This document shows, piece by piece, positions 1 to 20,616 of a DNA stretch of 64,000 bases. The translations under genes and the position numbers were made by a program. Under the pieces are notes generated by a model. That model had not been told where the DNA came from and did not search any database. It saw only the letters and a program-made list of their open reading frames with translations. The stretch comes from Leptolyngbya ohadii IS1 (GTDB lineage: Bacteria; Cyanobacteriota; Cyanobacteriia; Elainellales; Elainellaceae). Every line of letters starts with the position of its first letter. The stretch's first letter is position 1. The stretch is taken from the NCBI RefSeq assembly GCF_002215035.1, contig NZ_NKFP01000006.1, positions 1,996,530-2,060,529 on the forward strand, written 5' to 3'.

Positions 1-1587
<1,587 letters not shown>

Positions 1588-1713
1588 ATAGAAGCAGGCT
1601 AACGATCGCCGGACGGGTAAGGTGAATTTATCTCCATTCCCTTGCCCATCCCTCAGGGATCTGCTAGATGATTGCTAGACGTTCACTAATCCTTGTTGGA
1701 TTATTCCTCCATT

Positions 1714-1763
1714 GCGTTGCCAAGGTGAAGTTAGGCTTATACCTGACCATTGGCAACGCTTTT
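1714..1763 (+). terminator. Possible ppsA terminator hairpin
   Basis: The perfect 10-bp inverted repeat GCGTTGCCAA (1714-1723) / TTGGCAACGC (1750-1759) is followed by TTTT. The 26-nt loop can itself pair through AGG/CCT and GGT/ACC. It lies 127 nt after ppsA, which is rather far, so a terminator role is inferred. Confidence 0.4.
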
Positions 1764-1819
1764 GCGATCGGGTAGATTCAGCGATTTCATAACTGAATAG
1801 TCGATCGAAGTTTAACAAA

Positions 1820-1960
1820 TTCGTTTTCCCTCGTTTGCCTTTGTTTTGTCCTCGTTTGTCCTCGTTCCAATGCTCTGCGTTGGCATGTTCTTTAGAAGGC
1901 TCTGCCTCTAGATAGTATGGGCGGCAGAGCCGCATCCGAGCCATATCCAGGCTGAGATAC
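1820..1960. repeat. Dispersed palindromic repeat, copy 1 (GGCTCTGCC family)
   Basis: Contains CTCGTTCCAATGCTCTGCG (from 1861), the inverted repeat GGCTCTGCC (1898-1906) / GGCAGAGCC (1923-1931), then CGCATCCGAGCCATATCC and AGGCTGAG. The same modules in the same order occur at 9800-10045. It is preceded by degenerate CTCGTTTGTC tandem units. The open frame on the minus strand here is a translation of the repeat and not a gene. The rest of the 1588-2082 gap holds only the hairpin at 1714. Confidence 0.75.
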
Positions 1961-2082
1961 TTCAAGAATCCAGGTTGTTAAGCGTTCCGCTACAAATTCC
2001 TTGTCCTTGGGTGACTCGGCTTAAAATCGTTTCTAATCTCGCACCATTCCCATCCCATTCGATCGCCTTCCTCCATAAAGCA

Positions 2083-3549: not shown

Positions 3550-3646
3550 CCTTTTAGCTTTACTATGGGAACACCGCTGCGGGGAAACTGCTACGGGAAA
3601 CCTCCAAGCGACCGCCCACAACGCGCTACTGCCCACGCTGAAATCC

Positions 3647-4609
3647 ATGATGGACTATATTCGATCGACCCTTCTGCCTTCTAAGCCTGCCCAACTCCTG
3701 ATTAAAACTGGGATGAAATGGAATCAGGATAACTGTGCGGGAATGGCAGCGTCGCTGTCGTATTTTTCGCTGTTTTCCCTGTTTCCCATGCTGCTGGTCG
3801 TTTTGAGTATCATCGGTCGTCTGATTGCGCCGGGCACCGAGGCATTCGAGCAGATTCAGGAAGGCGTCGAAAGATTTTTGCCGCCGGAAGTTCATGACTT
3901 AATCAAGGAAACGGTCATTGCCCTGGGGCAAAACAGTGTAGGAGCCGGATTGATTGGCTTTGGTTTTCTCCTCTGGACGGCAAGTGCGGTCTTTTCTATC
4001 CTGCGGGATTCTGTGAACCGGATCTGGCGATCGCCTTTACACGGAATGCCCACCCACCCACCGAATCAAAATTCTGGGTCGGTGACAGGAATGGTGCTGT
4101 CCTTTGCGGCAAATCGGCTGTTTGCATTTCTGCTGGTACTCGGAACCGCCTTTTTGCTGATGGCTTCCCTGATGGTCAATCTGGCAGTTAAAACCATCCT
4201 CAAACTGGTGACAACTTTTCAGGAAACCTTCGCCTTTATCCAAATCGATGAACTGCTTTTAAGCAGAGGTCTACAAACTAGCTCCTCCCTACTGCTGCTG
4301 GCGCTAGCAATCTGCGTTTTGTACAAAATTCTGCCCTCGGTGTATGTTGCATGGGGCGATATCTGGCTGGGGGCGCTGCTGGTTGCTGTGGTGCTGGTGG
4401 GTCTTCAGCAGTTGGTCAGCAATAGCGTCATCTCGATCGGCAGTCATTTCCTGTCCTATGGGGTAATCGGCGGCGTCATGATTTTGCTGCTGTGGATTTT
4501 CCTCACCTGCCAGATTTTTCTATGTGGCTGCGTGTTCTCCTACGTTTATGCTCACCTGTTTGGCAGTCGTCGCCGCAAGGATTTCAACCAATCGTTAGAG
4601 TCTAAGTGA
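3647..4609 (+). CDS. YihY/BrkB family inner-membrane protein
   Basis: A 320-residue multi-pass membrane protein of the YihY/virulence factor BrkB family (formerly mis-annotated as ribonuclease BN). The family mark is the N-terminal segment around WNQDNCAGMAASLSYF followed by a TM segment beginning SLFPMLLVV. About six hydrophobic helices are visible (residues roughly 30-55, 95-120, 145-175, 205-230, 240-265, 275-305). The C-terminus is short, basic and cytoplasmic (GSRRRKDFNQ). The start is ATG at 3647 (MMDY). A longer open frame upstream overlaps the DUF2252 gene and carries no family sequence. The substrate is unknown for the family. Confidence 0.88.
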   Translation: MMDYIRSTLLPSKPAQLLIKTGMKWNQDNCAGMAASLSYFSLFSLFPMLLVVLSIIGRLIAPGTEAFEQIQEGVERFLPPEVHDLIKETVIALGQNSVGAGLIGFGFLLWTASAVFSILRDSVNRIWRSPLHGMPTHPPNQNSGSVTGMVLSFAANRLFAFLLVLGTAFLLMASLMVNLAVKTILKLVTTFQETFAFIQIDELLLSRGLQTSSSLLLLALAICVLYKILPSVYVAWGDIWLGALLVAVVLVGLQQLVSNSVISIGSHFLSYGVIGGVMILLLWIFLTCQIFLCGCVFSYVYAHLFGSRRRKDFNQSLESK

Positions 4610-4919
4610 CATGAGGTAGTCCTTCCAGGTTGCGGGTTGCCACAACACTGAGGGTTTGAGGGGCGACAGGGGAAGAGAGGCGGTCATTGCAAGAAGACTG
4701 AAAGAATAGGGTTGCTTTGATTTTCTCCAGGGGTTGGAGGCGAAGCAATGTAGGGGATCTCTCCCCAGTGACAGATTTTTTTCTAATTAAAATTAAGCAC
4801 CAGTTCAGCCCCTAGAACGATTCGATCGCCTAGGATTTCCGAGTACAAAAGAGCATAAGGATTGAAAGAAAACGATTCAAGAAACAAACACGACGTAAAT
4901 ACTTTTGGAGGCACTTGTT
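4610..4919. other. Intergenic region upstream of the small secreted protein
   Basis: 310 bp without a gene. It holds a short GC hairpin (GGGGA/TCCCC at 4753-4766) and an AT-rich stretch at 4771-4800 that could carry the promoter of the following gene. No dispersed repeat was recognised. Confidence 0.4.
4907..4911 (+). promoter_or_regulatory. Strong ribosome-binding site that fixes the start at 4920
   Basis: GGAGG lies 8 nt before the ATG at 4920. This supports that ATG over the in-frame upstream start at 4905, which would leave the site inside the gene. Confidence 0.7.
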
Positions 4920-5303
4920 ATGAATTTTCGGCATCGGATGGCGGCAGTTTTACGCCCGATTCGCACCCTGCTTATTGCAGTGACCTGTGCAGTGATGCTC
5001 TTTATGAATGCTGCGCCTGCAATGGCAATTAGCAGCCAGCCCACCGATCCCGCAAAGGGAGAACCGGGACTGCAAGATATTTTTGAACGCTCGGAAGATG
5101 CGCTCAAGTCGGACGATACCCTGACGATGAAAGTGAAGGATGCAGCCAACGGAGGCATCAACGAAGTGCAGGGTGCAGCCGACAAGAACGATATGTATCG
5201 CCCTGAAACCTCCAAGAAAGCAACCTCTGCTGAGGAACAGGTTGAGAACGTCCTGAGCAAAATCACCGACAAGTTTCCGGGGAACGATCGCAGCGATCGC
5301 TAA
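4920..5303 (+). CDS. Small secreted/lumenal protein, low-temperature-induced (Lti) type
   Basis: A 127-residue protein with a classic signal peptide: basic start (MNFRHRM), hydrophobic core (LLIAVTCAVMLFMNAA) and an AMA cleavage site near residue 36. The mature part is small, charged and helical, with NGGINEVQGAADKNDM and a C-terminal AEEQVENVLSKITDKF. This resembles the cyanobacterial 'low temperature-induced protein' family, from memory of the family and not from a search. The function is unknown; export to the periplasm or thylakoid lumen is inferred from the signal. It is a single-gene unit with a strong RBS upstream and a terminator at 5395. Cold or stress induction is family knowledge only. 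Confidence 0.78.
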   Translation: MNFRHRMAAVLRPIRTLLIAVTCAVMLFMNAAPAMAISSQPTDPAKGEPGLQDIFERSEDALKSDDTLTMKVKDAANGGINEVQGAADKNDMYRPETSKKATSAEEQVENVLSKITDKFPGNDRSDR

Positions 5304-5394
5304 ACTCCTTTAATCTCTGCGAGTTTTCTTCTGCGAATTTCTTTGCTAAGTTTCAGCCTTGAGAACTGCGTTTTGAAGTCGGGTGTAATATCAG

Positions 5395-5427
5395 AGCCGG
5401 GATGGGGCATCTCTCCTGGCTTTTTTT
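5395..5427 (+). terminator. Rho-independent terminator
   Basis: AGCCGGGA (5395-5402) pairs with TCCTGGCT (5414-5421) with one G-T wobble and an 11-nt loop. It is followed directly by a T-run (5421-5427). It lies 91 nt after the small secreted protein gene. Confidence 0.75.
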
Positions 5428-5849
5428 GTGTCTTTATTTTTCGCCTTTATTTTGTAGTCAGATTTTATATTCATTAGATGCGGCTAGATGCTGCATCCCT
5501 GGCAGGAATTTTAAGACTTTGACAGACTGCTGAATTTCCCTGGAATTGGAAGGTGGAGGGGAGACGAAGGGAAACGAAAGGTACATTACGATGGCTTTGG
5601 GGAATAGTTTTAGCCAGCAATTCGTCAAAATTTCAGCGATCGACGTAAAATTGCGCTATATATCTTAGGATGTAACGCTGAATATAGCGGTGAAAACTTC
5701 TAATCTCTGGAAGGGTACGCTATTTGAGGCGATCGATCGGGGCTATGATCAGTTTTCTATTTAGCCCCTGTTTTGCCCTATTTTTTATCGTCTCGATTAC
5801 TCCGCAACTCTATTCCTCCACTAGCCTTGTCGATTAAGAGTGTCCTGCT
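5428..5849. other. Intergenic region with an 8-bp inverted repeat
   Basis: About 420 bp without a gene between a terminator and the FAD oxidoreductase. It contains the perfect inverted repeat CGCTATAT (5654-5661) / ATATAGCG (5682-5689), with arm centres 28 bp apart, which could be an operator. Two GATCGATC-type clusters lie near 5639 and 5731. No open frame of note. Confidence 0.4.
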
Positions 5850-7814
5850 GTGAGCCAATCTCCCCTTCGTCAACTCGCACTATTTGCCTTTCTGATTCCG
5901 GTCGGCGCAACGGGTCTGCTGGGCGCGCTTCAGTATTACTCCTGGGGTGGCACGGTCACGCCCATTTCCTCGGCGGCTTCGGTGCCCGACAACAGTGCCA
6001 AAAGCCTTGACCCTGAAGGGATCGATCGCCTGGTGAACCGGATGAACGGCAGACCGACGCTCAAGCCCCTTCCAGAAGCAAAGGAAGTCTGGGAATGTGA
6101 GGTCGTGGTGCTGGGCGGCACAATGGGGGGGGTCTCTGCGGCAGCTCAGTCGATGCGATCGGGGGCAAAAACCTGTCTGATTGAGCTGACTCCCTGGCTG
6201 GGCGGACAGATTAGCTCTCAGGGAGTGTCTGCCCTGGATGAGTCGGTGAGCATGAATGCGCGGGGCAACCTGTCGCCAGACTGGATTGATTTCAAACGAT
6301 TAGTGAAGGATCAGCAGGTTGAAGTTCCCCCCTGGACAAATCTGGCTTCACCGCAAAATACCTCTGATTTGAACAGCTGCTGGGTCGCGACCCTGTGTTT
6401 TCTGCCCAAGGCAGGCGAACAAGCATCGGAACAGTGGCTTCAGCAGGCGGCAACCCAATCGCCGGAGAGCAAATGGACAACTTCCACTGCGTTTAAGGGC
6501 GCAACGTTCGATCCCACCGGACGGCTGATCACGTCGGTTTATGCGGTGCGTCGGATTCCGAAAAATCCGGGCTATGTGCCGCTGGGTCGTCCCTCAAAGG
6601 AGTTGCCCGTCTGGTACTCCTGGTCGCCTAACGATCAGTTTGATAAGGTGCCAATGCGCCTTCAGCCACCCGCTGGCAAACAAATGATTGTGATTGATGC
6701 TACGGATACGGGGGAGTTTCTCGGCTGGGCAGGGATTCCCTATCGGCTGGGTTCGGAGGGGCGGTCAACCACCAGCGAATATTTTGCCTCCCAGCAGGAC
6801 AATCCAGATTGTACGCAAGCATTTACCTTCCCGTTTGGCTTGGGAATTTTGGACGACGGCAAAGCCAGTCAGCAGCTCCTCGCCCAGGTGCAGCCGGGGT
6901 ATCCCAAAGCAGAACACCGCGCCTATTTCGACATGGAGGGCTTCCCCATGTTTGGCAGTGCCAGCGTGTTTAACTATCGCCGCATCCTCAGCACCACATC
7001 AAACGACTCGCGCAGCGATGATCCCGCTCCGGGCGACATTTCCATGCTCAACTGGAACCGGGGGAACGACTGGCCCTTTATGGACCCGCCCCTGATCCTG
7101 AACGAAAAGCAGATTACGGAGTTAGGGCAGCACGAAAACTGGCTGGGGGGACTTTCCCTGAGTGCGCTGCGCCACGGCGAGGAACATGCGCTGCTGTTTG
7201 CCGAATGGCTGATGGAAACCCAGTCCAAACCAGGACTGCCCATGACCTACCTCTACGGGATTGATATGCCGATGGGCACCGCTTCCGGGCTTAGCATGAT
7301 GCCCTACATTCGGGAGGGACGGCGGATGCTCGGTCGGAACGGCTACGGTCAGGTGGAATTTATGCTGCGCGAAGCCGATATCCGTACCGATATGCGGGGC
7401 GGCAGAGATTTTCGTCCCACAGCGATCGCCCTCACCCACTACCCGATCGATATGCACGGATGCCGCTACCGCAACCAGAGCGAAACCTGGGAAGCCAGCA
7501 GTGCGCCCCTCAAGGACGAACATTTAATTAAACCGATCTACATTCCCCTGGAAGCGATCGTGCCTCAGGAAGTTGATAATTTGCTGATTGGCGGCAAGTC
7601 GATCGCCGCAAGCCATATTGTCAACGGCGCAACACGGCTCCACTACGGCGAGTGGGTCATTGGGGGAGCCGCAGGCGCAACGGCTGGCTGGCTGGCAAAC
7701 TACAACCGTCGTCCCAATCATCCCTATCTACTGCCGCCGGAAATTATTCGCAAAAACTATATTGGGGAGCTGCAAACTAAGATCCGCGAACGGGGTTTTA
7801 CGCTCGACTGGTAA
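5850..7814 (+). CDS. Secreted/membrane-anchored FAD-dependent oxidoreductase
   Basis: A 654-residue protein starting at GTG 5850. It has an N-terminal hydrophobic segment (LALFAFLIPVGATGLLGAL, residues 8-26) that is either a signal peptide or an anchor. A flavin-binding Rossmann motif follows at about residue 87 (VVVLGGTMGGVSAAA) with IELTPWLGGQISSQG behind it, the pattern of the FAD-dependent oxidoreductase family PF12831. The second dinucleotide-domain half is near the C-terminus (LLIGGKSIAASHIVNGATR then GEWVIGGAAGATAGW). Substrate and partner are unknown. The protein ends FTLDW. A location outside the plasma membrane is inferred. It stands alone, with long gaps on both sides. Confidence 0.87.
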   Translation: MSQSPLRQLALFAFLIPVGATGLLGALQYYSWGGTVTPISSAASVPDNSAKSLDPEGIDRLVNRMNGRPTLKPLPEAKEVWECEVVVLGGTMGGVSAAAQSMRSGAKTCLIELTPWLGGQISSQGVSALDESVSMNARGNLSPDWIDFKRLVKDQQVEVPPWTNLASPQNTSDLNSCWVATLCFLPKAGEQASEQWLQQAATQSPESKWTTSTAFKGATFDPTGRLITSVYAVRRIPKNPGYVPLGRPSKELPVWYSWSPNDQFDKVPMRLQPPAGKQMIVIDATDTGEFLGWAGIPYRLGSEGRSTTSEYFASQQDNPDCTQAFTFPFGLGILDDGKASQQLLAQVQPGYPKAEHRAYFDMEGFPMFGSASVFNYRRILSTTSNDSRSDDPAPGDISMLNWNRGNDWPFMDPPLILNEKQITELGQHENWLGGLSLSALRHGEEHALLFAEWLMETQSKPGLPMTYLYGIDMPMGTASGLSMMPYIREGRRMLGRNGYGQVEFMLREADIRTDMRGGRDFRPTAIALTHYPIDMHGCRYRNQSETWEASSAPLKDEHLIKPIYIPLEAIVPQEVDNLLIGGKSIAASHIVNGATRLHYGEWVIGGAAGATAGWLANYNRRPNHPYLLPPEIIRKNYIGELQTKIRERGFTLDW

Positions 7815-7835
7815 TTCTGCCGCTTCTTTCCCATG

Positions 7836-7879
7836 AGGGTCTGCCCCCTATAAAGCAAGGGTCTGCCCCCTATAAAGCA
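7836..7879. repeat. Perfect 22-bp tandem duplication
   Basis: Two identical 22-nt units (AGGGTCTGCCCCCTATAAAG plus CA) at 7836-7857 and 7858-7879, just after the oxidoreductase stop. The rest of the 7815-8158 gap is AT-rich and unremarkable. Confidence 0.85.
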
Positions 7880-8158
7880 CTGGAAAAACCCTCCGATCGC
7901 GCTTAATCTACCCCCGGTCAAGCAAGCATAATTTTTTCTGTGGTTTTAAATAATCCAATTAGCTTTTGCTAAACCGATGATTTCAGTGCAATGACCGGGG
8001 AAATACGGAAAAGACCAGCATCAGGGGAAATTCATTCCGGAGAAAGATATGAATTTTTAGCAAATCTCCGCTGGCACTAAACATTTTTTTGAGGGATTCC
8101 CCGTATGCTTGATTTATATTTCGGGCAGAATAAGTGTATTCCCTGAGGGTAAAAATCT

Positions 8159-8758
8159 ATGGGCACTTACAAAAACATAATGGAAATGCTGGTTGAGGAG
8201 GAAGTGATCCGCCAGTGTAAAGCGCTTCCTTCCCGTTCCTCTAGCTACTTCAACTCTGAAGAGCTGATCGCCTATGCCCTGAATCAACTGCCGCCGCTTT
8301 ATGCCACCAGTGAACAGGGTTTACAGTACCAGCTGCAAAAAGGACGGGCAAAGTTTGGACCGCAAATTACGCAAGCAGTTCAGCGGGCGATCGCGGCAGT
8401 CCGGCGTGATCCTCTGCGTCGCAATACGCCCCTGGAGAAAGGACAGGCAGTTCCCCTGAACAACGTGCTTCAGCAAATGCGGCAGCTGCTTCGAGACGAA
8501 GACATTGAATGGGAAACGCTGCCGATGGCAGTTGAACGAGCGATCAAACGGGTTGCTTTCCGGGCTGCCCGTGGTGCATCCGCGAATCCTGTTACCAGTG
8601 GCGCTGCGAACCAAGCCCCTACCCCCGATCGCACAGCAACGGTCAGTCGCTCCTCCCAGGTTAGAGCCGCTGCGGAAACTCGCCCCAATTCAGAAGGGTT
8701 AACGGATGATGCAGTTGCAGAATACGGCTGGGACAACCCACTATATTTTTCTCGCTAG
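8159..8758 (+). CDS. ComFB domain protein (c-di-GMP receptor family)
   Basis: A 199-residue protein whose first half is a ComFB domain: YKNIMEMLVEEEVIRQC, then LIAYALNQLPPLYATSEQG and a helical end (QITQAVQRAIAAVRRDP). ComFB was named after a Bacillus competence operon. Cyanobacterial members (CdgR type) have been described as c-di-GMP receptors affecting cell size and motility. The last 80 residues are low-complexity, Ala/Thr/Ser-rich and end AEYGWDNPLYFSR, probably a disordered tail. The start is ATG 8159 after GAGGG. It is monocistronic and convergent with the MDR gene. Nucleotide binding is inferred from the family. Confidence 0.85.
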   Translation: MGTYKNIMEMLVEEEVIRQCKALPSRSSSYFNSEELIAYALNQLPPLYATSEQGLQYQLQKGRAKFGPQITQAVQRAIAAVRRDPLRRNTPLEKGQAVPLNNVLQQMRQLLRDEDIEWETLPMAVERAIKRVAFRAARGASANPVTSGAANQAPTPDRTATVSRSSQVRAAAETRPNSEGLTDDAVAEYGWDNPLYFSR

Positions 8759-8831
8759 GTTTCCCGCTAAGTCTCTCTCGCTAGATTTTTGCCCAAAGCC
8801 CTCGCCCCGATCTCTGCCCTCGATCCAGGCA

Positions 8832-9761
8832 CTAGCTCACCTGAAACACAATCTTGCCGCGTGTGCGTCCACTCTGGCTGAGCCGATGTGCCTCCGCAAC
8901 CTGCTCCAGAGGAAGGACTGTTTCGACGATCGATCGAAGTTGACCTGCATCGATTAGCTTTGCCATTTCCGTCAGCCAGTCGGCTCTGGGCTGAATAAAG
9001 ATGTAGGCACTGCGGCACTGATGCGCGGCTGCTTTCTCTTCGGAGGGCGGCGACACCACCGAAACCAGAATGCCCCCTGGCTTTAGCACCTGCCAAGAAC
9101 GCTCCTGCACCTCACCGCCGATCGTATCGAACACCACATCGACGGGATCAACCGCAGATTCAAACGGGGTGGACTGATAATCAATCACTTCATCTGCACC
9201 CAGTTCCAGCACCAGATCCCGATTGCGAGCGGAAGCCGTGCCAATCACGTGCGCCCCTTTCCAGTGGGCGAGCTGCACCGCATAGCTGCCAACCCCACCC
9301 GCTGCCGCATGGATTAAAACCCGCTGTCCAGCCGTGAGTTGGGCGGATTCAAACAGGGCGTGCCATGCCGTAATTGCTGCGAGGGGCACTGCGGCTGCCT
9401 CAACGTGATCGATCGTCTTTGGCTTGAGGGCAACCTCCGAGGCTTTCACCGCAATGTATTCCGCATACGCGCCATCCCGTTCAATATTGGGGCGAGAATA
9501 AACCTCATCGCCTGACTTAAAATTCGTGACGTTTGCACCGACGGACTCCACCACGCCAGAGACATCCCAGCCCAAAGTCAGCGGCAGCGGGTAGGGAATA
9601 AACTCCTTCAGATAGCCTTCCCGGATCTTCCAGTCCACCGGATTAACCGACGCTGCACAAACCCGAATCAGAACATCATCTTCGGCGATCGAGGGCAGGG
9701 GAACGTCTTCCAGTTGCAGAACTTCGGAACCGCCATAGGCATGAATTCGGACTGCTTTCAT
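8832..9761 (-). CDS. NADP-dependent MDR oxidoreductase (quinone oxidoreductase-like)
   Basis: A 309-residue medium-chain dehydrogenase/reductase. The GroES-like half opens MKAVRIHAYGGSEVLQ and includes AASVNPVDWKIREG and LGWDVSGVVESVG. The Rossmann half has AAAGGVGSYAVQLAHWKGA (an NADP-binding AxxGxxG type) and DVVFDTIGG. No catalytic-zinc cysteine or histidine set is visible, so it belongs to the zinc-independent quinone reductase side of the family. The probable role is NADPH-dependent reduction of quinones or enones in the cytoplasm. It runs as a single gene on the minus strand. Confidence 0.9.
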   Translation of the reverse strand: MKAVRIHAYGGSEVLQLEDVPLPSIAEDDVLIRVCAASVNPVDWKIREGYLKEFIPYPLPLTLGWDVSGVVESVGANVTNFKSGDEVYSRPNIERDGAYAEYIAVKASEVALKPKTIDHVEAAAVPLAAITAWHALFESAQLTAGQRVLIHAAAGGVGSYAVQLAHWKGAHVIGTASARNRDLVLELGADEVIDYQSTPFESAVDPVDVVFDTIGGEVQERSWQVLKPGGILVSVVSPPSEEKAAAHQCRSAYIFIQPRADWLTEMAKLIDAGQLRSIVETVLPLEQVAEAHRLSQSGRTRGKIVFQVS

Positions 9762-9799
9762 AGTGTGACCTGCTTGCCTTTCAACTACTCTTCTTTCAG

Positions 9800-10045
9800 C
9801 GCTAAGGTTGCTTTTCGTCGTTTCGTCGTTTCCTCAGTTTCCTCAGTTTCCTATTCCAATATTCTGCGTTGAAATAGATTCGTTCCTCGTTCGTTCCTCG
9901 TTTCGTTCCTCGTTCCAATGCTCTACGTTTCCTCTTTCCTCGTTCCAATGCTCTGCGTTGGAATTGTAAATAGGAGGCTCTGCCTCCAGATCCGATGAGT
10001 TAGCGGCAGAGCCGCATCCGATCCACATCCAGGCTGAGCCTGGAC
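9800..10045. repeat. Dispersed palindromic repeat, copy 2, with degenerate tandem units
   Basis: Degenerate tandem units first (TTTCGTCG, TTTCCTCAG, CGTTCCTCGTT), then three versions of CTCGTTCCAATGCTCTGCGTT (near 9851, 9908 and 9938). Next come GGAGGC/GCCTCC (9973-9987), GGCTCTGCC (9977-9985) / GGCAGAGCC (10004-10012), CGCATCCGATCCACATCC and the palindrome CCAGGCTGAGCCTGG (10030-10044). The module order matches 1820-1960. It fills most of the 9762-10149 gap. The minus-strand open frame across it is a repeat translation. Confidence 0.8.
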
Positions 10046-10077
10046 ACCAGAAAAACCAGAAAAGGCAATTTCCTCTT

Positions 10078-10110
10078 GTAGGGTGGGCAGCCTGCCCGCC
10101 GATCGGGTTT
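10078..10110. repeat. Short GTGGGC-type inverted repeat
   Basis: TGTAGGGTGGGCAGCCTGCC followed by CGCCGATCGGG, with GGGCAG/CTGCCC able to form a hairpin. A diverged relative (TTGTGGGCATTCTGTCCGCC then GATTGGGG) occurs near 17061-17090, upstream of the CheA region, suggesting a dispersed family. Confidence 0.4.
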
Positions 10111-10149
10111 TCTTCCCACCTTATTCAAGTTACTGAATTCTCCCCTGTT

Positions 10150-12378
10150 CTAAACCGATTCCAGCAAATGTTTTAACTCCTCCTCCCGGTGCTGAAGCCG
10201 CTCTGCCAGCAGATCCACAATAAAGCGGTGAATATTAGACGCCAGAACCGGATCTGAGGATTCGATGCGCTCAAAGGTTTCCGACGACAGGAAGTACAGC
10301 ACGCTCGGCTTATCCGCAATCACGGAGGCAATGCGAACCGTGCGGCGATACAGTCCCATCTCCCCGATCGTATTCCCCACCGTGTAGGTGCGAATCCGCT
10401 TCATCTGTCCGTCGCTCAATTCCAGCACCACGCTCACCTGTCCGGCGGCGACAAAATATAGCCCGTCGAACAGATCGCCCTGGCGGAATAAACAATCTCC
10501 CTCATTTAAGTGCCGCTGTTCCAGCAGATCCATCAGGCGATCGACCTGTTTGGGGTCAGAGAAGTCGGTTTTGAGGTGGGAAGCCAGGGCAGCCGCGGGA
10601 GAGGAAAAGCTATTTTCGGATTGGGGAGTATGTCGCAGGAGAATTTGCTGCTCGTACCACTCCAGCCCGCGATCGAGATCCGAAAAGGCGTGGCAGAACG
10701 GATCGTTTTCGTCCAGGCAGTCTCCCTGCTCCAGTTGCCGCTTTGCCTGGGCGGAGAGGTGGGTGTACAGCAAATGCACCTGCTTCTGGTCGGCAACCTG
10801 TTTGAGCTTGGCAAAACTGAGAACCGCTGAGGCATCCAGTCCGCTCACCAGCCGGAAATCCAGAACCACATAGCGCACGGGCGGCAAATCTTCGTGGTTA
10901 ATTCGATCGCGCACCTGATTCAGCAGTTTATTGGCGGTGCCAAAGAAGATCAGCCCTTGCAGTTCCACAATATACGCCTGCTCGCCCTCAGCCTCCAGGA
11001 TTTCCAGTTCCTCAGAGGTTCGCAGCACATTGCTGTGATGGTATGCCCCAGAGCTAACCCGCCGCGTCACATTGAGCTGGCTGTAGCTGATCACAAACAG
11101 TACGATCGCCGCCACCAGCCCTGCCCCGATCGCCTGAAGGAAGCCCACCGTCACGGTGATCAGCACAATCAGCAGAATGATCGCGTAGTCCGAGCGGGAG
11201 AACTTAAACCAGGCTTCGTAGAGCCATTCGTTAAAGAATTCGATCGTGATCAGCAGCGGCATTCCAATCAGAATAAAGTTGGGGAACAGCGCCAGGATCG
11301 GCGCACCGCCCAGCATCATTGCCAGACACATTGCCGCGATAATCCAGCTTACGATTCGCCGAGTGGCTCCCAGTTCATGGGACAGGGCATTCTCTCCCGC
11401 ACTGGCAAACCCGCCCACACCGCCACCCACTCCGGCAATCAGCCAGGCAATTCCCGCCGCATTCAGTTCCCGATTTAAGTCCAGATCGCGAGAAGCAACC
11501 AGCTCTACCCCGTTGATATGCAGCAGCAGGGCGATCGAGGAAACCAGCCAGAAAGCCGCCATTGTAGGCAACTGCTGAAACACCACGCTCCAGTTTGCCT
11601 GCTGGAATGCCTGCACCGTTGCAAACTGATAGAGCCCACCGGAGGGCACCGTTCCCAGGAGCCAGCCTCGTTCCGTAGCATCCGCGATCGAAATGCCGCC
11701 GAGCGATAGTGCCAGATAGAACAGCGCAACCGCCGCCGCCAGAATTGCCGGATAGACCGCAACGTGATGGATTCTCTGGGGCAAAACAAACATCACCACC
11801 GCAAAAATTAGCGCCGGGAACCATTGCAGCAGCACATTGGGCTGAAAGAATGCCGCGATCGAGAAAGGCTGCAAACTCAAACCTGATACTGACCCGAATG
11901 CCGCAATCAGGAGGAGTGCGCCGATCGCCGCCAGGAAGCCGCCTACCACCGGATAGGGAATAAAGCGGACAAAACTGCCCAGCTTGAATTTACCCAGCGC
12001 CAGAAAGATAATTCCGGTAGCAAAGCTATTGACCACCAGGGTCGCTACAAACGTCAGCAGCTTTTGTTCTGCCGATGCCCCCGGCATATCCTCCACAACC
12101 TGCTTACCCAGTAGGGCAAAGATGGGAATGGTCACTTCGGCGATCGTGACAACCAGGGGCGGATAGGAACTGAGCGAACCCACAACCCCGCTAACAATCA
12201 CTGAACTGAACAGCAGCAGCCCAATGCCAAAGGGAAGGACGGAAGCCAGATCCCCCGCAAAGATCACCTTGCCAAACGAGACTGCGCTTGTAACCGTCAG
12301 CAGACCCATAATTGCCCCCGCAATCAGGTTGGATACCACTGGATTTGTTGCTGGTTTGGAATAGGTGATAGTCGCCAC
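10150..12378 (-). CDS. SulP/SLC26 anion transporter with STAS and cyclic-nucleotide-binding domains
   Basis: A 742-residue membrane protein. Residues 1-420 form the SulP permease core: many hydrophobic helices, starting NPVVSNLIAGAIMGLLTV and including SYPPLVVTIAE. Residues about 450-560 are a STAS domain (YVVLDFRLVSGLDASAVLSF, the loop that is phosphorylated or binds nucleotides in anti-sigma antagonists). Residues about 615-735 are a CAP-type cNMP domain (FRQGDLFDGLYFVAAG, GNTIGEMGLYRRTVRIASV). The phosphate-binding cassette carries GEMGLY..RTVR, near the consensus GE..L....R.A. The likely job is sulfate, bicarbonate or related anion uptake gated by a nucleotide, inferred from the domains. 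The substrate cannot be set from sequence. It is a single gene, divergent from the Wsp-like operon. Confidence 0.9.
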   Translation of the reverse strand: MATITYSKPATNPVVSNLIAGAIMGLLTVTSAVSFGKVIFAGDLASVLPFGIGLLLFSSVIVSGVVGSLSSYPPLVVTIAEVTIPIFALLGKQVVEDMPGASAEQKLLTFVATLVVNSFATGIIFLALGKFKLGSFVRFIPYPVVGGFLAAIGALLLIAAFGSVSGLSLQPFSIAAFFQPNVLLQWFPALIFAVVMFVLPQRIHHVAVYPAILAAAVALFYLALSLGGISIADATERGWLLGTVPSGGLYQFATVQAFQQANWSVVFQQLPTMAAFWLVSSIALLLHINGVELVASRDLDLNRELNAAGIAWLIAGVGGGVGGFASAGENALSHELGATRRIVSWIIAAMCLAMMLGGAPILALFPNFILIGMPLLITIEFFNEWLYEAWFKFSRSDYAIILLIVLITVTVGFLQAIGAGLVAAIVLFVISYSQLNVTRRVSSGAYHHSNVLRTSEELEILEAEGEQAYIVELQGLIFFGTANKLLNQVRDRINHEDLPPVRYVVLDFRLVSGLDASAVLSFAKLKQVADQKQVHLLYTHLSAQAKRQLEQGDCLDENDPFCHAFSDLDRGLEWYEQQILLRHTPQSENSFSSPAAALASHLKTDFSDPKQVDRLMDLLEQRHLNEGDCLFRQGDLFDGLYFVAAGQVSVVLELSDGQMKRIRTYTVGNTIGEMGLYRRTVRIASVIADKPSVLYFLSSETFERIESSDPVLASNIHRFIVDLLAERLQHREEELKHLLESV

Positions 12379-12764
12379 GTTAGTTGGAGAAGGTTAAAAG
12401 ATTTGGAAAAAGGTGCAGGATCGAGGACGGCAGCGATTGCTGTGCTTATCGTATAGAATTCTCTCCGGCTCGTATTAGAACAGCAAGCAACTTCCTACTT
12501 CAGAGGTAGCCTAGCCGCTACGCAGGGGGTCACAATCCAAAGGATTACAGCATTTTGTAGATGTTTTGCGGAATCTATTCGCACCGATCGAGATATTTTT
12601 TGCCGGCATAGAGTTTTCTATCCCTACGGAGGATGTGGCATGAGAGGCGCTGGGATAATGTCAGTAGAGGTCGTGCTGTCCTTTAGCAAAGGCTAAACCC
12701 GCTAGCAACTTTGACATAGCGGCAGCCACACCCTAATTTCAGGATCTCATCTCTGGCTGAAGCA
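12379..12764. other. Divergent promoter region (SulP gene / Wsp-like operon)
   Basis: 386 bp without a gene. It must hold the promoters of the minus-strand transporter and the plus-strand chemosensory operon. No clear -10/-35 pair, operator palindrome or dispersed repeat could be assigned by eye. Confidence 0.4.
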
Positions 12765-13256
12765 ATGCTGCTGCTGTTCCACATTGGCGAGAATCTTTAT
12801 GCCATTGACACCGATCGCGTGATCGAAATTGTGCCAATGGTTTTGCTGCGAAAGATTGAGCCTGCGCCGGATCACATTGCGGGCGTTTTTAACTATCGCG
12901 GCAACATCGTGCCTGTGATCGATCTCTGTCGTTTAATTCGGGGAAATCCCTGTCGAATTTGCTACAGCAGCCGTCTGATTATGGTGAGCTACAGCCCGGA
13001 GGAAGGGAAGACCCAAGAGCAGCCCCAGCGTCAATTCGGACTGATTGTAGAACGAGTTTCAGAAACGCTAAAAGTAGCAGCCGATCGCATTAAAACCGCA
13101 GAACCGATCAGCGACTCACCCTATTTCGGTGAACTGTTTGTGGATGAAAAAGGAATTATTCAGACGGTGAATTGGGAGCAGTTAATCAAAGATGCTGATC
13201 AAGCAGCACTACTGGGCAAAGGGAATCATCAAGCAAATGGTGCAGGATGCAATTGA
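12765..13256 (+). CDS. wspB: CheW-like coupling protein, WspB type
   Basis: A 163-residue CheW-domain protein, first gene of a chemosensory operon. It opens MLLLFHIGENLYAIDTDRVI and contains PDHIAGVFNYRGNIVPVIDL, which match Pseudomonas WspB closely in style. CheW proteins link the receptor array to the histidine kinase at the inner membrane. The C-terminus (PYFGELFVDEKGIIQTVNW) is also WspB-like. The stop at 13256 overlaps the CheR gene, so the two are probably translationally coupled. The Wsp assignment rests on remembered family sequences; CheW membership is firm. Confidence 0.87.
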   Translation: MLLLFHIGENLYAIDTDRVIEIVPMVLLRKIEPAPDHIAGVFNYRGNIVPVIDLCRLIRGNPCRICYSSRLIMVSYSPEEGKTQEQPQRQFGLIVERVSETLKVAADRIKTAEPISDSPYFGELFVDEKGIIQTVNWEQLIKDADQAALLGKGNHQANGAGCN

Positions 13257-14274
13257 GGCATTGTTGAGGCAAAAGCTCGGACTCGATGCCAACAGCGTTG
13301 GTTCACGTCTGATTGAACGGGCGGTAGAACAGCGGCAAATTGCCTGCCAAATCACCAATCGCGCTACCTATCTTGCTCACCTGCGATCGTCCCCCGATGA
13401 AATGAATCAGCTTGTGGAAGCCGTCGTTGTTCCAGAAACGTGGTTTTTCCGCGATCGGGAACCGTTTGAGTATCTGCGTCAGTATGTAAAGCAGCCCGTG
13501 AAGCAGCCTGTAACGACAGAATATCAAAGAGCGCCAGGGGAAATTTTTCGGGTTCTCAGCTTGCCCTGCTCCACCGGAGAAGAACCCTACTCGATCGCCA
13601 TTACTCTCCTGGAAGCCGGACTGAAGCCAGCCCAATTTCAGGTAGACGCGATCGACGTGAGCCAGCAGGCACTCCTCCAGGCACAGCGGGGCGTTTATCG
13701 CAAAAAATCCTTTCGCGGCGGCGCAATCCAGCACCTAGAGCAATATTTTCAACCCCAGACAGGTCAGCCCCCAACAGAAGGCTATACCGTGCGATCGGTT
13801 GTGCAAGAAAGCGTCGAATTCCGCCAGGGCAACGTCCTCAACGCGAACCTCCTGCTCGGCAGACAGTACCACGCCATTTTCTGTCGCAATCTGCTGATCT
13901 ACCTCGACGAAGCCGCCCGTCATCAGGTGATGACCTCCCTCGATCGCGCCCTCCTCCCCCTGGGTCTTCTCTTCCTGGGGTCTGCCGAAACCACCCAGAT
14001 CAACCCCAAAACCTACCAGTCGATCGAGGACAAGATGGAGAGAACGGGCGATCGGGGGATGAGGACGGTTCACACAAATGATTTAAACCGGGATTCAGGC
14101 ATACATTCAGACATACGTTCAGGCAGACTAAGTTCAGGCAAATTACTATGGTTCGATCGTTCTGGAATCGGGTTTCAAATCAGCCGAACGCCTACCTGTT
14201 GCTGGGGCAGATCTATCAGGGACTCAACCAGACCCACCAGGCAGAACGCTGTTTTCAAAAGGCAGTTTATCTGA
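13237..14274 (+). CDS. wspC: CheR methyltransferase, WspC type, with disrupted C-terminus
   Basis: CheR uses SAM to methylate glutamates on the chemoreceptor. It has the N-terminal helical domain, FFRDREPFEYL, SAM-site motif LSLPCSTGEEPYSIAI and IFCRNLLIYLD. An intact WspC would continue to a TPR tail. Here the frame after QSIED (about 14029) enters a 164-bp copy of the cheR-3'/mcp-5' junction and reads nonsense (MERTGDRGMRTVHTND...) to the stop at 14274, while the TPR repeat survives in another frame. The ATG at 13237 (MVQDAIEALLRQKLGLDA) fits WspC better than ATG 13192, and leaves a 20-nt overlap with wspB. The catalytic domain looks complete up to QSIE, so methylation may persist without the TPR. 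Confidence 0.85.
   Translation: MVQDAIEALLRQKLGLDANSVGSRLIERAVEQRQIACQITNRATYLAHLRSSPDEMNQLVEAVVVPETWFFRDREPFEYLRQYVKQPVKQPVTTEYQRAPGEIFRVLSLPCSTGEEPYSIAITLLEAGLKPAQFQVDAIDVSQQALLQAQRGVYRKKSFRGGAIQHLEQYFQPQTGQPPTEGYTVRSVVQESVEFRQGNVLNANLLLGRQYHAIFCRNLLIYLDEAARHQVMTSLDRALLPLGLLFLGSAETTQINPKTYQSIEDKMERTGDRGMRTVHTNDLNRDSGIHSDIRSGRLSSGKLLWFDRSGIGFQISRTPTCCWGRSIRDSTRPTRQNAVFKRQFI
14018..14181. repeat. 164-bp direct duplication, copy A (inside cheR)
   Basis: Identical to copy B (14375-14553) except for one A/G difference at 14027 and a 15-nt unit (AGACTAAGTTCAGGC) present once here and twice in B. Copy A carries the tail of cheR, the intergenic spacer and the first 11 codons of the mcp gene, placed inside cheR. 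Copy B is in the natural context, so A is the inserted copy. Both begin at AGTCGATCG, a possible microhomology junction. Confidence 0.93.
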
Positions 14275-14438
14275 ACCCCTACGACTATGAAGCCCTGATC
14301 TACCTTGCCCTTTTGAAGGAACAGCAGGGCAATCCCACCGAGGCAGAAAGATTGAGGCGACGAGCGCAGCGGCTAGTCGATCGGGGACAAGATGGAGAGA
14401 ACGGGCGATCGGGGGATGAGGACGGTTCACACAAATGA
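14148..14438 (+). CDS. Orphaned TPR tail of CheR/WspC with an mcp-derived start
   Basis: A 96-residue open frame. The first 11 residues (MVRSFWNRVSN) are those of the downstream chemoreceptor, supplied by the duplicated segment. From residue 12 it reads in frame into a TPR unit (QPNAYLLLGQIYQGLNQTHQ, AERCFQKAVYLNPYDYEALI, LALLKEQQGNPTEAERL), the usual C-terminal repeat of WspC. It ends with the natural cheR C-terminus. The duplication thus supplies a start codon and upstream context like those of the mcp gene, so a separate TPR peptide could be made. Whether it is real or an assembly product is open. Confidence 0.55.
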   Translation: MVRSFWNRVSNQPNAYLLLGQIYQGLNQTHQAERCFQKAVYLNPYDYEALIYLALLKEQQGNPTEAERLRRRAQRLVDRGQDGENGRSGDEDGSHK

Positions 14439-14553
14439 TTTAAACCGGGATTCAGGCATACATTCAGACATACGTTCAGGCAGACTAAGTTCAGGCAGAC
14501 TAAGTTCAGGCAAATTACTATGGTTCGATCGTTCTGGAATCGGGTTTCAAATC
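14375..14553. repeat. 164/179-bp direct duplication, copy B (natural cheR-mcp junction)
   Basis: Covers the cheR 3' end, the spacer and the first codons of the mcp gene. It contains the direct 15-nt repeat AGACTAAGTTCAGGC twice, within a run of ATTCAGG/GTTCAGG units. Partner of 14018-14181. Confidence 0.93.
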
Positions 14554-16918: not shown

Positions 16919-16946
16919 TGGATGGGTGGATGGGTGGATGGGTGAG
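16919..16946. repeat. Octanucleotide tandem repeat TGGATGGG
   Basis: Three perfect TGGATGGG units followed by TGAGTG, 17 nt after the wspD stop. A sister array (TGGATGRG) lies just after the histidine kinase stop at 44150. These are STRR-type repeats as known in cyanobacteria. Confidence 0.75.
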
Positions 16947-17138: not shown

Positions 17139-17504
17139 ATGGCGGATTATTCGATGCTGGATTTACTTCGTCAGGAGGTGGATGCTCAGGTGGCAAACCT
17201 GAAGCAAAACTTGACGATGCTTAAACAGCAGCCCGGATCACCACCCGATCGATCACTGCGCGAATTAGAAGATGGGCAGCGGGCACTGAAGACGATTGAT
17301 GCACTGGCTCAAGTTGTTGGAGTAGAAGCAGCTGCGACCGTTGCGGGAGCAATTCAGGCAAATTTGCTTGAATTGCTCCCGCAACGGTCGCAGCTGCTTC
17401 TACTCCAACAACTTGAGCCAGTGCATCAATCGTCTTCAGTGCCCGCTGCCCATCTTCTAATTCGCGCAGTGATCGATCGGGTGGTGATCCGGGCTGCTGT
17501 TTAA
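17139..17504 (+). pseudogene. Hpt/CheA-N-like fragment disrupted by a palindrome
   Basis: From ATG 17139 the frame reads MADYSMLDLLRQEVDAQVAN and LRELEDGQRALKTIDALAQV, then VGVEAAATVAGAIQANL. This resembles a second, diverged Hpt-type helical module related to the start of the CheA gene (MMDLFRLEVEEQ). At 17363 it crosses the centre of a palindrome and reads the reverse complement of itself until the stop at 17504. Its true C-terminus is therefore missing. It may once have been a separate small protein between WspD and WspE, or the front of WspE. Which one cannot be told here. Confidence 0.55.
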
Positions 17505-17533
17505 GCATCGTCAAGTTTTGCTTCAGGTTCGCC
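17192..17533. repeat. 342-bp near-perfect spacerless palindrome
   Basis: The left arm 17192-17362 and right arm 17363-17533 are reverse complements over 171 bp, with two mismatches (17195/17530 and 17358/17367) and no loop; the centre is AAA|TTT at 17362/17363. A palindrome this long and without spacer is normally unstable in bacteria, so it is either a chimera or a very unusual structure. Confidence 0.93.
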
Positions 17534-17575
17534 CCCTGGCCACCCCCCCCCATCCAACTCCGTGTCGATGCCCAA

Positions 17576-19963
17576 ATGATGGATCTCTTCCGTCTAGAAG
17601 TGGAAGAACAGGCAAAGATCCTCAATGATGGACTGCTGACCCTGGAGGCGGAACCGACGGCAATTCAGCCGCTAGAGGCACTGATGCGGGCTGCTCATTC
17701 AATCAAGGGGGCGGCGCGGATTGTAGGACTGGATGCGGCAGTGAACCTGGCTCACACGATGGAGGATTGCTTTGTTGCAGCTCAGGAACGGACGCTGACC
17801 CTCAACGCGGATCTGGTGGATCAGCTTTTGTGCGGCGTTGATTTATTGCAGGAACTCAGCCATACCAGCGATCGCGATCTGCCCGAATGGTTTGCTGAAC
17901 ACGATAACGCGATCGCCACCGTTCGATCGAGGATTGAATCCCTGCGGCAGTCTCCCTCGGATGCTCAAACTGGTTCATCTCCAGATTCACAAAGCCCTTC
18001 TTCCCCCGATTCGCCCGATCATCCTGCGAATAATAATTCTTCGGGAAATTCACCCCATTCTTCAGACCTTGCTGCTAGTGGGAACGGTTACAGTCAGGCA
18101 CAGCCGAGTCAAAACCAGTCTGTTTTAGTCGCTGCCCGATCGCCCTCTGGAGAAACGGCAAAGCAGCCGATCGACTCACAGCGGGATTCATCCACTCGTG
18201 ATTCAGCGGCTTCTGGGTCGCAGCGGGTGGTGCGGGTGAGTGCGGATAACCTGAATCGGATTATGGGACTTGCCGGAGAATCGCTGATTGAGGCGAATGC
18301 CCTGCCTGCCTTTGCCAATGCCCTGATGAAGGTGCGATCGCATCAGATCGAGCTGGCTACCAATTTAGATGCCCTGGAACAGCGACTCCTTGGCGAATCT
18401 GCCCTCAGTCCGGTCGAGCAGGTGCTATTTGAGCGGGTTCGGCAGCAGGAGCGACAGTGCCGCAATTTGCTCAGCGATCGGGTCGCGGAACTGGAGGAAT
18501 TTATTCGCCGCACCACAAATTTGTCCGATCGGCTGTATCGGGAGGTCATTACGTCCCATATGCGTCCCTTTGAGGAGGGGGTGCAGAACTTTTCTCGCAT
18601 GGTACGCGACCTTGCCCGCAGTCTCAACAAGCAAGTTCGACTGGAAATTATTGGCAAATCCACGACGGTCGATCGGGATATTCTGGCGCGACTGGAAACC
18701 CCCATCACCCACATTCTGCGAAATGCGATCGATCACGGCATCGAATTCCCGGCAGACCGGGTTGCAGCAGGCAAATTACCTGAAGGCAGAATTCGGCTGG
18801 AAGCAGCCCATCGGGGCGGAATGCTCACGATTACCGTTTCAGACGATGGGACAGGCATCAACGTGCAGCGGCTTCGCCAAAAGGCGATCGATCGGCAGCT
18901 CATCACCCCAGATATGGCTTCCCGCCTCTCGGATGCCGAACTGATGGAGTTCCTCTTCCTGCCCGGCTTTACCCTGTCTCAGCAGGTGACGGAACTTTCT
19001 GGACGTGGGGTGGGCTTGGATATTGTCAAAAGTATGGCGCAGGAAGTGGGCGGGACGGTGCGCGTGACCTCTCAGCCGGGGAAAGGCACGGCATTTCATT
19101 TCCAGTTGCCCCTCACCCTTTCCGTCGTGCGAACGCTGATGGTCGAAGTCGCAGGCGAAGTCTATGCCTTTCCGCTCTCCCGTATTGACCAGATCGTGAC
19201 GCTGAAGCAGCAAGACCTTTCCGTGGTGGAAAATCGGCAGTACTTCACGCTGGAGGAGCAAAACATCGGGCTGATTCCTCTCTACCAAGTGCTGGATCTG
19301 CCGCCGCCGCAAACCCCATCCGAGTCCTACTGGGTGGTCGTTCTGAGCGATCAGTCTGACCCCTACGGCTTAATGGTCGATCGCTGTCTGGGAGAACGGG
19401 AACTGGTTGTGCGCCCGCTCGACCCGCGTCTGGGCAAATTGCAGGATGTGAGCGCAGCGGCACTGATGGGCGACGGTTCGCTGGTGCTGATCCTGGATGT
19501 ATCTGACCTGATTCGATCGGTTAACGGACTGCTCGGAAACAGCAGATTGGCAAAGGTAGGCGAAACGCGCAATAGCAAGCAGGGGAAAGCAGAAGCAAAA
19601 CGAGTGCTGGTTGTCGATGATTCGATTACCGTGCGGGAAATGGAGCGCAAACTGCTGCAAAACCACGGCTATATCGTCGATGTTGCGGTAGACGGCATGG
19701 AAGCCTGGAACGCCGTTCGCTCCTATCCCTACGATCTGGTGATCAGCGATATCGATATGCCGCGCATGAACGGAATTGATCTGATTAAACAAATTAAACG
19801 TCACTCCAGATTTCAGTCTATTCCCGTGATTGTGGTGTCCTACCGCGATCGCGAAAACGATCGAATTCAGGGATTAGAAGCCGGAGCAGATTATTATCTA
19901 ACCAAAAATAGCTTCCACGACGATACACTCATCCGCGCTGTCGCTGACCTGATTGGCGAATAA
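17576..19963 (+). CDS. wspE: CheA hybrid histidine kinase with receiver, WspE type
   Basis: A 795-residue protein. The Hpt domain has its phospho-histidine at residue 41 (AAHSIKGAARIVGL). Residues about 115-215 are a Ser/Pro-rich low-complexity linker. Then come a dimer/ATPase core (HILRNAIDHGIEFPADRV near 378, DDGTGIN near 422, GRGVGLDIVK), a CheW-like domain (VEVAGEVYAFPLSRIDQIV near 517) and a receiver (RVLVVDDSITVREME near 675, phospho-acceptor in VISDIDMP). The architecture and opening (MMDLFRLEVEEQAKILNDGL) match WspE. A run of nine C (17543-17551) and the 342-bp palindrome lie immediately upstream, so the natural start region may be damaged. In frame upstream the sequence reads LRVDAQ, recalling the VDAQ of the fragment at 17139. 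Confidence 0.92.
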   Translation: MMDLFRLEVEEQAKILNDGLLTLEAEPTAIQPLEALMRAAHSIKGAARIVGLDAAVNLAHTMEDCFVAAQERTLTLNADLVDQLLCGVDLLQELSHTSDRDLPEWFAEHDNAIATVRSRIESLRQSPSDAQTGSSPDSQSPSSPDSPDHPANNNSSGNSPHSSDLAASGNGYSQAQPSQNQSVLVAARSPSGETAKQPIDSQRDSSTRDSAASGSQRVVRVSADNLNRIMGLAGESLIEANALPAFANALMKVRSHQIELATNLDALEQRLLGESALSPVEQVLFERVRQQERQCRNLLSDRVAELEEFIRRTTNLSDRLYREVITSHMRPFEEGVQNFSRMVRDLARSLNKQVRLEIIGKSTTVDRDILARLETPITHILRNAIDHGIEFPADRVAAGKLPEGRIRLEAAHRGGMLTITVSDDGTGINVQRLRQKAIDRQLITPDMASRLSDAELMEFLFLPGFTLSQQVTELSGRGVGLDIVKSMAQEVGGTVRVTSQPGKGTAFHFQLPLTLSVVRTLMVEVAGEVYAFPLSRIDQIVTLKQQDLSVVENRQYFTLEEQNIGLIPLYQVLDLPPPQTPSESYWVVVLSDQSDPYGLMVDRCLGERELVVRPLDPRLGKLQDVSAAALMGDGSLVLILDVSDLIRSVNGLLGNSRLAKVGETRNSKQGKAEAKRVLVVDDSITVREMERKLLQNHGYIVDVAVDGMEAWNAVRSYPYDLVISDIDMPRMNGIDLIKQIKRHSRFQSIPVIVVSYRDRENDRIQGLEAGADYYLTKNSFHDDTLIRAVADLIGE

Positions 19964-20202: not shown

Positions 20203-20616
20203 ATGAGAATTGCGATTGTAAATGACATGGTGATTGCGATCGAAGCAATGCGGCGGGTGCTGTTGACCGTTGCTGAACATCAGGTCGTTTGGGTTGCAAA
20301 AAATGGTGTGGAAGCGGTTGCCAAATGTGCCCAGGACACGCCCGACTTAATTTTGATGGATTTGATTATGCCCGTGATGGACGGCATTGAAGCTACCCGG
20401 CAAATCATGCAGCGATCGCCCTGCGCCATCCTGATTGTCACCGCAGACGTTAAACTCAACGCCGCCAAAGTCTACGAAGCCATGAGCTACGGTGCCCTCG
20501 ATGCCGTCAACACGCCGATTCTAGGCACCTACGGCAATCCCGAAATCACCCAGTCGCTCCTCCGGCGGACCAAAAGCCCTCGCCACCATCCTCTCCCCCC
20601 TGCCTGCCAGCTTTGA
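20203..20616 (+). CDS. wspF: CheB/WspF receiver half (frameshifted gene, N-terminal part)
   Basis: It opens MRIAIVNDM, the WspF signature where VND replaces the usual VDD, then [12 protein letters not shown] and [20 protein letters not shown] (phospho-acceptor Asp in LMDLIMP) and [15 protein letters not shown]. After GNPEITQS (about 20554) the frame runs out to a stop at 20616. The methylesterase domain continues in the +1 frame from the same point ([12 protein letters not shown], from 20558). Intact CheB has a linker of some 30 residues here, and it is absent. It is thus a receiver-only product unless frameshifting occurs. It is the last gene of the Wsp-like set. Confidence 0.8.

What the first reader, a model, noticed from the sequence alone, without database searches (positions are those of the whole stretch)
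17192..17533. 342-bp spacerless near-perfect palindrome destroying an Hpt-like module ahead of CheA
Arms 17192-17362 and 17363-17533 are reverse complements with two mismatches and no loop. Long spacerless palindromes are normally cut or lost in bacteria (SbcCD-type nuclease), so a native one would be exceptional. The left arm is coding (MADYSMLDLLRQEVDAQ...), the right arm is its mirror. Foldback chimeras of this form are also typical of multiple-displacement amplification or assembly errors.
Basis: seen in the sequence. Interest (0 to 1): 0.72.

Follow-up and report, generated by a model that had tools for sequence, protein, structure and literature searches.

The report
Foldback artefact in a cyanobacterial assembly
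The long mirror-image DNA stretch is really in the sequence file, but the same kind of scar recurs elsewhere in this genome assembly and even cuts a gene the cell almost certainly needs, so it is most likely a sequencing or assembly error and not a feature of the living cell.

Summary
Confirmed: 17192-17362 and 17363-17533 are reverse complements, 2 mismatches in 171, no spacer. Three relatives carry one long cheA here: Hpt1, linker, Hpt2, kinase. In the window 70-103 residues after Hpt1's 'AIQANL' are missing; an inverted copy of Hpt1 coding sequence stands in their place, and Hpt1 and kinase are out of frame. The lost stretch was not found elsewhere in the assembly. This is not local: 864 kb of the same contig hold 9 such palindromes (arms 33-606 bp) and 18 other near-identical local repeat pairs; 820 kb of three relatives hold no palindrome. 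One palindrome removes the first 44 residues of the only purH, which is full-length in 5 of 5 relatives checked. SbcC and SbcD, expected to cut such DNA, are encoded. At 2 of 3 fold centres compared, the sibling FACHB-502 carries a native short palindrome, as self-priming would need; at cheA itself it does not. Best reading: foldback chimeras from amplification, library preparation or gap filling, left in the assembly. Raw reads were unavailable. Interest low.

The parts
17192..17362 (+). left arm of the palindrome: native coding DNA of the first Hpt domain of cheA
17363..17533 (.). right arm: inverted copy of the left arm, standing where relatives have the rest of Hpt1 and a linker
17369..17529 (.). 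161-nt tract that is a perfect mirror of 17196-17356: the copied part proper
17355..17370 (.). fold centre CAGGCAAATTTGCTTG; possibly a native quasi-palindrome that primed the foldback; its one mismatch would be a G-T pair
   Evidence: that it is native is only inferred (leucine codon conserved in relatives); the sibling FACHB-502 has no palindrome at this point
17139..17362 (+). remaining 5' part of cheA (Hpt1; Pfam Hpt match of the frame 17139-17504 is E 0.0051, 17.5 bits, under the gathering score of 24.6)
17552..19963 (+). remaining 3' part of cheA: Hpt2, dimerisation, ATPase, CheW and receiver domains; out of frame with Hpt1
14018..14181 (+). direct near-copy of 14375-14553 inside cheR, standing where relatives have 78-108 residues of linker: a second scar of the same family
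20540..20600 (+). cheB break: linker and (by eye) the start of the methylesterase domain missing, frame shifted; no copied sequence was seen here

Best explanation
The palindrome is a foldback chimera that entered the assembly, not DNA of the living cell. Shown: left-flank cheA sequence is mirrored at a centre GCAAATTTGC, the native continuation is missing, forward sequence resumes in the linker just before Hpt2, and similar scars recur in the same assembly. Inferred: at a poorly covered spot a 3' end (or a gap-filling program's growing edge) folded onto itself at a short palindrome and ran back along its own copy for about 160 nt; the product was then joined to the contig that begins in the linker. 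The true gene is very probably an intact double-Hpt cheA of about 900-1000 codons. Which step made the foldback (whole-genome amplification, library preparation, long-read foldback, or gap-filling software) cannot be told from the sequence.
For: (1) 9 spacerless palindromes of 50 bp or more (arms 33-606 bp), 9 other inverted and 9 direct near-identical pairs within 3 kb, in 9 of 41 own stretches (864 kb, N-free); in 41 stretches (820 kb) of three relatives no palindrome, no inverted pair and 4 direct pairs. (2) The only purH of the genome begins at profile position 45 of 510, at a palindrome, while 5 of 5 relatives checked have positions 3 or 4 to 510. Weaker: the one pdxJ has its native start codon, first few residues and upstream DNA replaced by a 1212-bp palindrome; its conserved part is otherwise complete, profile 4-237 against 2-237 in the sibling. 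(3) Native sequence is lost with the copy: 103, 92 and 70 residues of cheA against FACHB-502, FACHB-8 and G020, and the lost part was not found elsewhere in the assembly (three weak matches, best E 0.008, in the second-Hpt region of the same gene). (4) Two fold centres coincide with short palindromes in the sibling FACHB-502: GTCAATATTGAC in pdxJ and GGAATTCC in purH. (5) SbcD and SbcC are encoded, above family cut-offs. (6) This assembly holds N runs of 261 (C2) and 361 (C6) and many scattered single Ns in C3 and C4, so it looks patched, unless the tool's operators put those Ns there. (7) Palindromic chimeras are a known product of amplification and of nanopore libraries (PMC1855051, PMC6218980, PMC12870357: passages; PMC13141652: abstract and outline).
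Against: No reads, coverage or assembly record could be examined, so the artefact is inferred. The genome is rated 100% complete with 0.58% contamination, and the window's contig is 4.26 Mb, unlike a typical amplified single-cell assembly. The scars cluster (9 of 41 stretches), which genomic islands could also give. Short-range direct copies are a third of the pairs here (9 of 27), but in the published MDA set only 11 direct against 337 inverted were under 10 kb (PMC1855051), so plain MDA alone fits poorly. Nine further own stretches (contig starts and one end) had no palindrome. At the cheA centre the sibling FACHB-502 has no palindrome, and at the purH centre the three further relatives displayed (L123, L125, L126) lack a perfect one.
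Confidence: 0.94

Rival explanations
1. A real in-vivo template switch: during replication the nascent strand snapped back at GCAAATTTGC, copied about 160 nt and rejoined further on, destroying cheA in this strain. The polyploid cyanobacterium tolerates it.
For: The anatomy (copy, deletion, short palindrome at the centre) is what snap-back priming in vivo would also leave. cheR and cheB in the same cluster are broken too, as in a decaying pathway.
Against: The same kind of scar removes the start of the only purH. Spacerless palindromes with about 500 perfectly mirrored bp per arm, in a genome that encodes SbcC and SbcD, would not be expected to persist. No palindrome in 820 kb of three relatives.
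Confidence: 0.05
2. A functional palindrome: a hairpin regulatory element, a MITE or another mobile element placed between Hpt1 and the kinase.
For: Near-perfect hairpin potential.
Against: The left arm is cheA coding sequence and the right arm its mirror. The left-arm DNA has no third copy in the genome at E 0.001. It leaves the gene out of frame.
Confidence: 0.01

Closest known systems
Inverted chimeras of multiple displacement amplification (PMC1855051, passages read; PMC6218980, passages)
   Same: Inverted copy with an intervening deletion; short complementary sequence at the junction; artificial palindromes and inverted duplications surviving into assemblies.
   Different: The scars traced here (cheA, cheR) return to forward sequence after a few hundred bases, and direct short-range copies are common (9 of 27 pairs) where that study found few. 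No evidence that this DNA was amplified.
Foldback reads of long-read libraries (PMC12870357, passages; PMC13141652, abstract and outline)
   Same: Second segment lies on the opposite strand at the same place, with no or little spacer.
   Different: Such reads are a small fraction (about 0.55-0.6% of ONT genomic reads in the first paper; 0.18-7.33% inverted repeats in the second) and should be outvoted at good depth. The sequencing method of this genome is unknown to me.
Chemosensory (CheA-type hybrid kinase) clusters of relatives: FACHB-502 L020, Leptolyngbya sp. FACHB-8 L028, G020 L018
   Same: Same gene order cheW, cheR, mcp, cheW, cheA, cheB, read from the matches.
   Different: In the three relatives cheR, cheA and cheB are each one open frame; in the window all three are broken.

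Membership tests
foldback (inverted) chimera in an assembly | near-identical mirrored arms with no or little spacer | tested here: met
   171 bp, 2 mismatches, spacer 0
foldback (inverted) chimera in an assembly | native sequence missing at the junction | tested here: met
   70-103 residues missing against three relatives; not found elsewhere in the genome
foldback (inverted) chimera in an assembly | short native complementarity at the fold | tested here: inconclusive
   sibling FACHB-502 has a palindrome at 2 of 3 centres compared, pdxJ and purH, not at cheA; the other six centres were not compared
foldback (inverted) chimera in an assembly | recurrent, gene-blind events in one assembly, including a gene expected to be essential | tested here: met
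   that purH is needed is recalled, not tested
foldback (inverted) chimera in an assembly | absent from spanning raw reads | not testable with these tools
   no reads held
MDA chimera in the narrow sense | short-range direct joins rare relative to inverted ones | tested here: not met
   9 direct of 27 repeat pairs, not independent events, against 11 direct and 337 inverted under 10 kb in PMC1855051
stably inherited long palindrome | host lacks the SbcCD nuclease (recalled condition) | tested here: not met
   SbcD 242.5 bits over cut-off 77.65; SbcC 498.2 bits with its neighbours in the frame over cut-off 478.5, frame 1045 aa
CheA-type hybrid histidine kinase | Hpt, dimerisation, HATPase, CheW and receiver domains | tested here: met
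   for 17552-19963

The most novel reading that the evidence does not exclude
The palindromes are real: this polyploid cyanobacterium suffers genome-wide snap-back template switching at short native palindromes (several with a CGATCG core). It keeps broken copies of genes such as purH and cheA beside intact ones on other chromosome copies, and carries kilobase palindromes despite SbcCD.
Probability: 0.03. Interest if true: 0.85.

Novelty: not a real feature. Interest (0 to 1): 0.08.

Why it matters
As biology it very likely does not matter. As a warning it does: a genome rated 100% complete with 0.58% contamination carries scars that break cheR, cheA, cheB and purH and displace the start of pdxJ. 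Pseudogene counts, inverted-repeat surveys or template-switch catalogues built on such assemblies would be wrong. A scan for spacerless palindromes of 50 bp or more is a cheap quality test.

Tried and rejected
Looked for the missing cheA stretch elsewhere in the genome: only three weak matches, E 0.008 to 0.67, the best in the second-Hpt region of the same gene. Considered a mobile element or MITE: rejected, since the arms are cheA coding DNA without a third copy in the genome at E 0.001. Considered loss of SbcCD as an excuse for a native palindrome: both are encoded. Considered plain MDA chimerism: the shape fits, the share of direct copies does not. Considered the single inner mismatch as a G-T pair in the priming stem: possible for cheA; the comparable mismatch at L078 would be an A-C pair if the right arm is the native one, so I make no general claim. 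Considered pdxJ as a second destroyed essential gene: too strong, because its frame stays open and nearly the whole profile (4-237 of 239) is there. Tried to learn the strain through its smallest contig in the plasmid collection: no match, but the tool may leave the own genome's records out. A paper search for misassembled cyanobacterial palindromes gave 3 papers, by their listing not on this subject. The choice of own stretches was not fully blind: L072, L078 and L086 were taken next to stretches already known to have scars, and the window was chosen because of its palindrome. Without these four, together give 7 palindromes in 5 of 46 own stretches (920 kb). In one search the script set the centre of L078 four bases off; its true centre holds no CGATCG either.

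Full report
Observation. The palindrome is in the sequence at the stated place: arms 17192-17362 and 17363-17533, 171 bp, no spacer, mismatches at positions 6 and 168 from the centre. The longest perfect mirrored tract is 161 nt, 17196-17356 against 17369-17529. The two mismatches therefore sit at the two ends of the copied tract, one in the fold centre and one where native sequence appears to resume.

What stood there. The window is contig C6 (4.26 Mb), 1996530-2060529, of a 7.9-Mb assembly in 8 contigs; that it is a cyanobacterium follows from its named relatives. In one search, 9 of 60 genomes, the own one included, have a match to the left-arm protein. In Cyanobacteria bacterium FACHB-502 (L020), Leptolyngbya sp. 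FACHB-8 (L028) and G020 (L018) the place is one cheA frame of 1019, 954 and 903 codons measured from stop to stop, with Hpt1, a linker, Hpt2 and the kinase. Against these, the window lacks 103, 92 and 70 residues between Hpt1 and the restart before Hpt2. The first part (ATG 17139) and the kinase part (ATG 17576) are in different frames. The missing stretch of FACHB-502 was not found elsewhere in the own genome: three weak matches, the best E 0.008 at 33% identity, in the second-Hpt region of the same gene.

Neighbours. The same cluster has two more breaks. In cheR, 14018-14181 is a near-copy of 14375-14553 (91% over 179 columns, with one 15-nt unit missing), standing in for 78-108 residues of linker. 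In cheB 39 residues against G020, and by eye more against the other two, are gone, including the start of the methylesterase domain, and the frame is shifted; no copied sequence was seen there.

Genome-wide. I sampled 40 stretches of 20 kb from C6 and added the window: 41 stretches, 864 kb, no N. Repeats of 50 bp or more at 90% or more identity within 3 kb: 9 spacerless palindromes, 9 other inverted pairs and 9 direct pairs, in 9 of 41 stretches; these are BLAST pairs, not independent events. The palindromes are 66 to 1212 bp long; two have 504 and 510 perfectly mirrored bases per arm. The same scan of 21 stretches of G001 (420 kb), 10 of G003 and 10 of G008 (200 kb each) gave no palindrome, no inverted pair and 4 direct pairs. 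Nine more own stretches (contig starts and one end) gave no palindrome and one direct pair. Three of the 40 stretches were taken next to known scars, and the window was chosen for its palindrome; leaving these four out, 7 palindromes remain in 5 of 46 own stretches, 920 kb (arithmetic).

Genes hit. One palindrome (L032 4893-4998) replaces the start of purH. The remaining frame matches profile positions 45-510, and the only other match in the genome is a weak one to positions 10-63 (20.5 bits). In 5 of 5 relatives examined purH covers positions 3 or 4 to 510. A 1212-bp palindrome replaces the native start codon, first few residues and upstream DNA of pdxJ. No other copy exists except its mirrored part. 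The rest of pdxJ is complete, profile 4-237 against 2-237 in the sibling, and its frame is open, so this case is weaker. That a free-living phototroph needs purH is recalled and not tested here; I did not search for unrelated replacements of its function.

Fold centres. In the sibling FACHB-502 (G001) the pdxJ centre reads GTCAATATTGAC and the purH centre GGAATTCC: short palindromes native to the gene. Three further relatives displayed at the purH centre (L123, L125, L126) lack a perfect one. At the cheA centre the sibling has no palindrome. So the sibling supports 2 of 3 centres compared; six others were not compared. Positions with a perfect palindrome of 8 bp or more make up 0.3% of the own sample. 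Four of nine centres contain CGATCG within 14 nt, against 4% of all 14-mers; this comparison flatters the effect because palindrome centres are palindromic by definition. The cheA centre CAGGCAAATTTGCTTG would pair with one G-T mismatch; that it is native is inferred only from the leucine codon conserved in relatives. These facts fit a 3' end that primed on itself, or a gap-filling edge that changed strand at a short palindromic overlap.

Cell biology. SbcD and SbcC are encoded above family cut-offs. That long spacerless palindromes are cut by SbcCD and are unstable or inviable in E. coli is recalled; of the papers found I saw only the search listing with the starts of abstracts.

Literature on artefacts. 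Passages of PMC1855051: 406 of 475 MDA chimeras (85%) were inverted, and 3' ends primed at 2 or more complementary bases in 76.8%. Passages of PMC6218980: amplification yields artificial palindromes, and an assembly made from such reads showed many inverted duplications that were not detected after correction. Passages of PMC12870357: foldback reads at about 0.55-0.6% of ONT genomic reads. Abstract and outline of PMC13141652: inverted-repeat chimeras, 0.18-7.33%, with ligation libraries of microbial and human standards. The share of short-range direct copies here does not fit plain MDA, so I leave the source open. N runs of 261 (C2) and 361 (C6) and scattered Ns in C3 and C4 suggest patching, though the tools warn that withheld stretches also read N.

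Verdict. No mechanism in the living cell needs to be invoked.

Noticed in passing
window 14018-14181 and 14375-14553: cheR carries a direct near-copy of the cheR-mcp spacer and mcp start in place of its linker.
   Followed up: yes
window 20540-20600: cheB has lost its linker and, by eye, the start of its methylesterase domain, with a frameshift.
   Followed up: partly
L032 (C6 300001-320000), 4053-18014: Seven near-identical local repeat pairs including palindromes of 1212 and 106 bp; purH loses its start and pdxJ its native start codon.
   Followed up: yes
L037 11595-12501; L045 1441-3318; L073 13363-13728; L074 5127-7069; L078 10670-11055; L083 1541-2605; L088 9651-11118: Further palindromes or inverted and direct near-copies, in or beside frames matching a TrkH transporter, a ring-opening amidohydrolase, an acetyl-CoA acyltransferase and, weakly and below cut-offs, a peptidase/amidohydrolase.
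   Followed up: partly
L113 (C3 start) 765-12436; L114 (C4 start) 618-1725; L112 (C2) 6103-6363; L116 (C6 start) 12722-13082: Scattered single Ns (in C4 in what reads like 16S rRNA, by eye) and N runs of 261 and 361 bases.
   Followed up: no
window 16920-16945: GGATGGGT-type short tandem repeat between cheW and cheA; such arrays could be where assembly broke.
   Followed up: no
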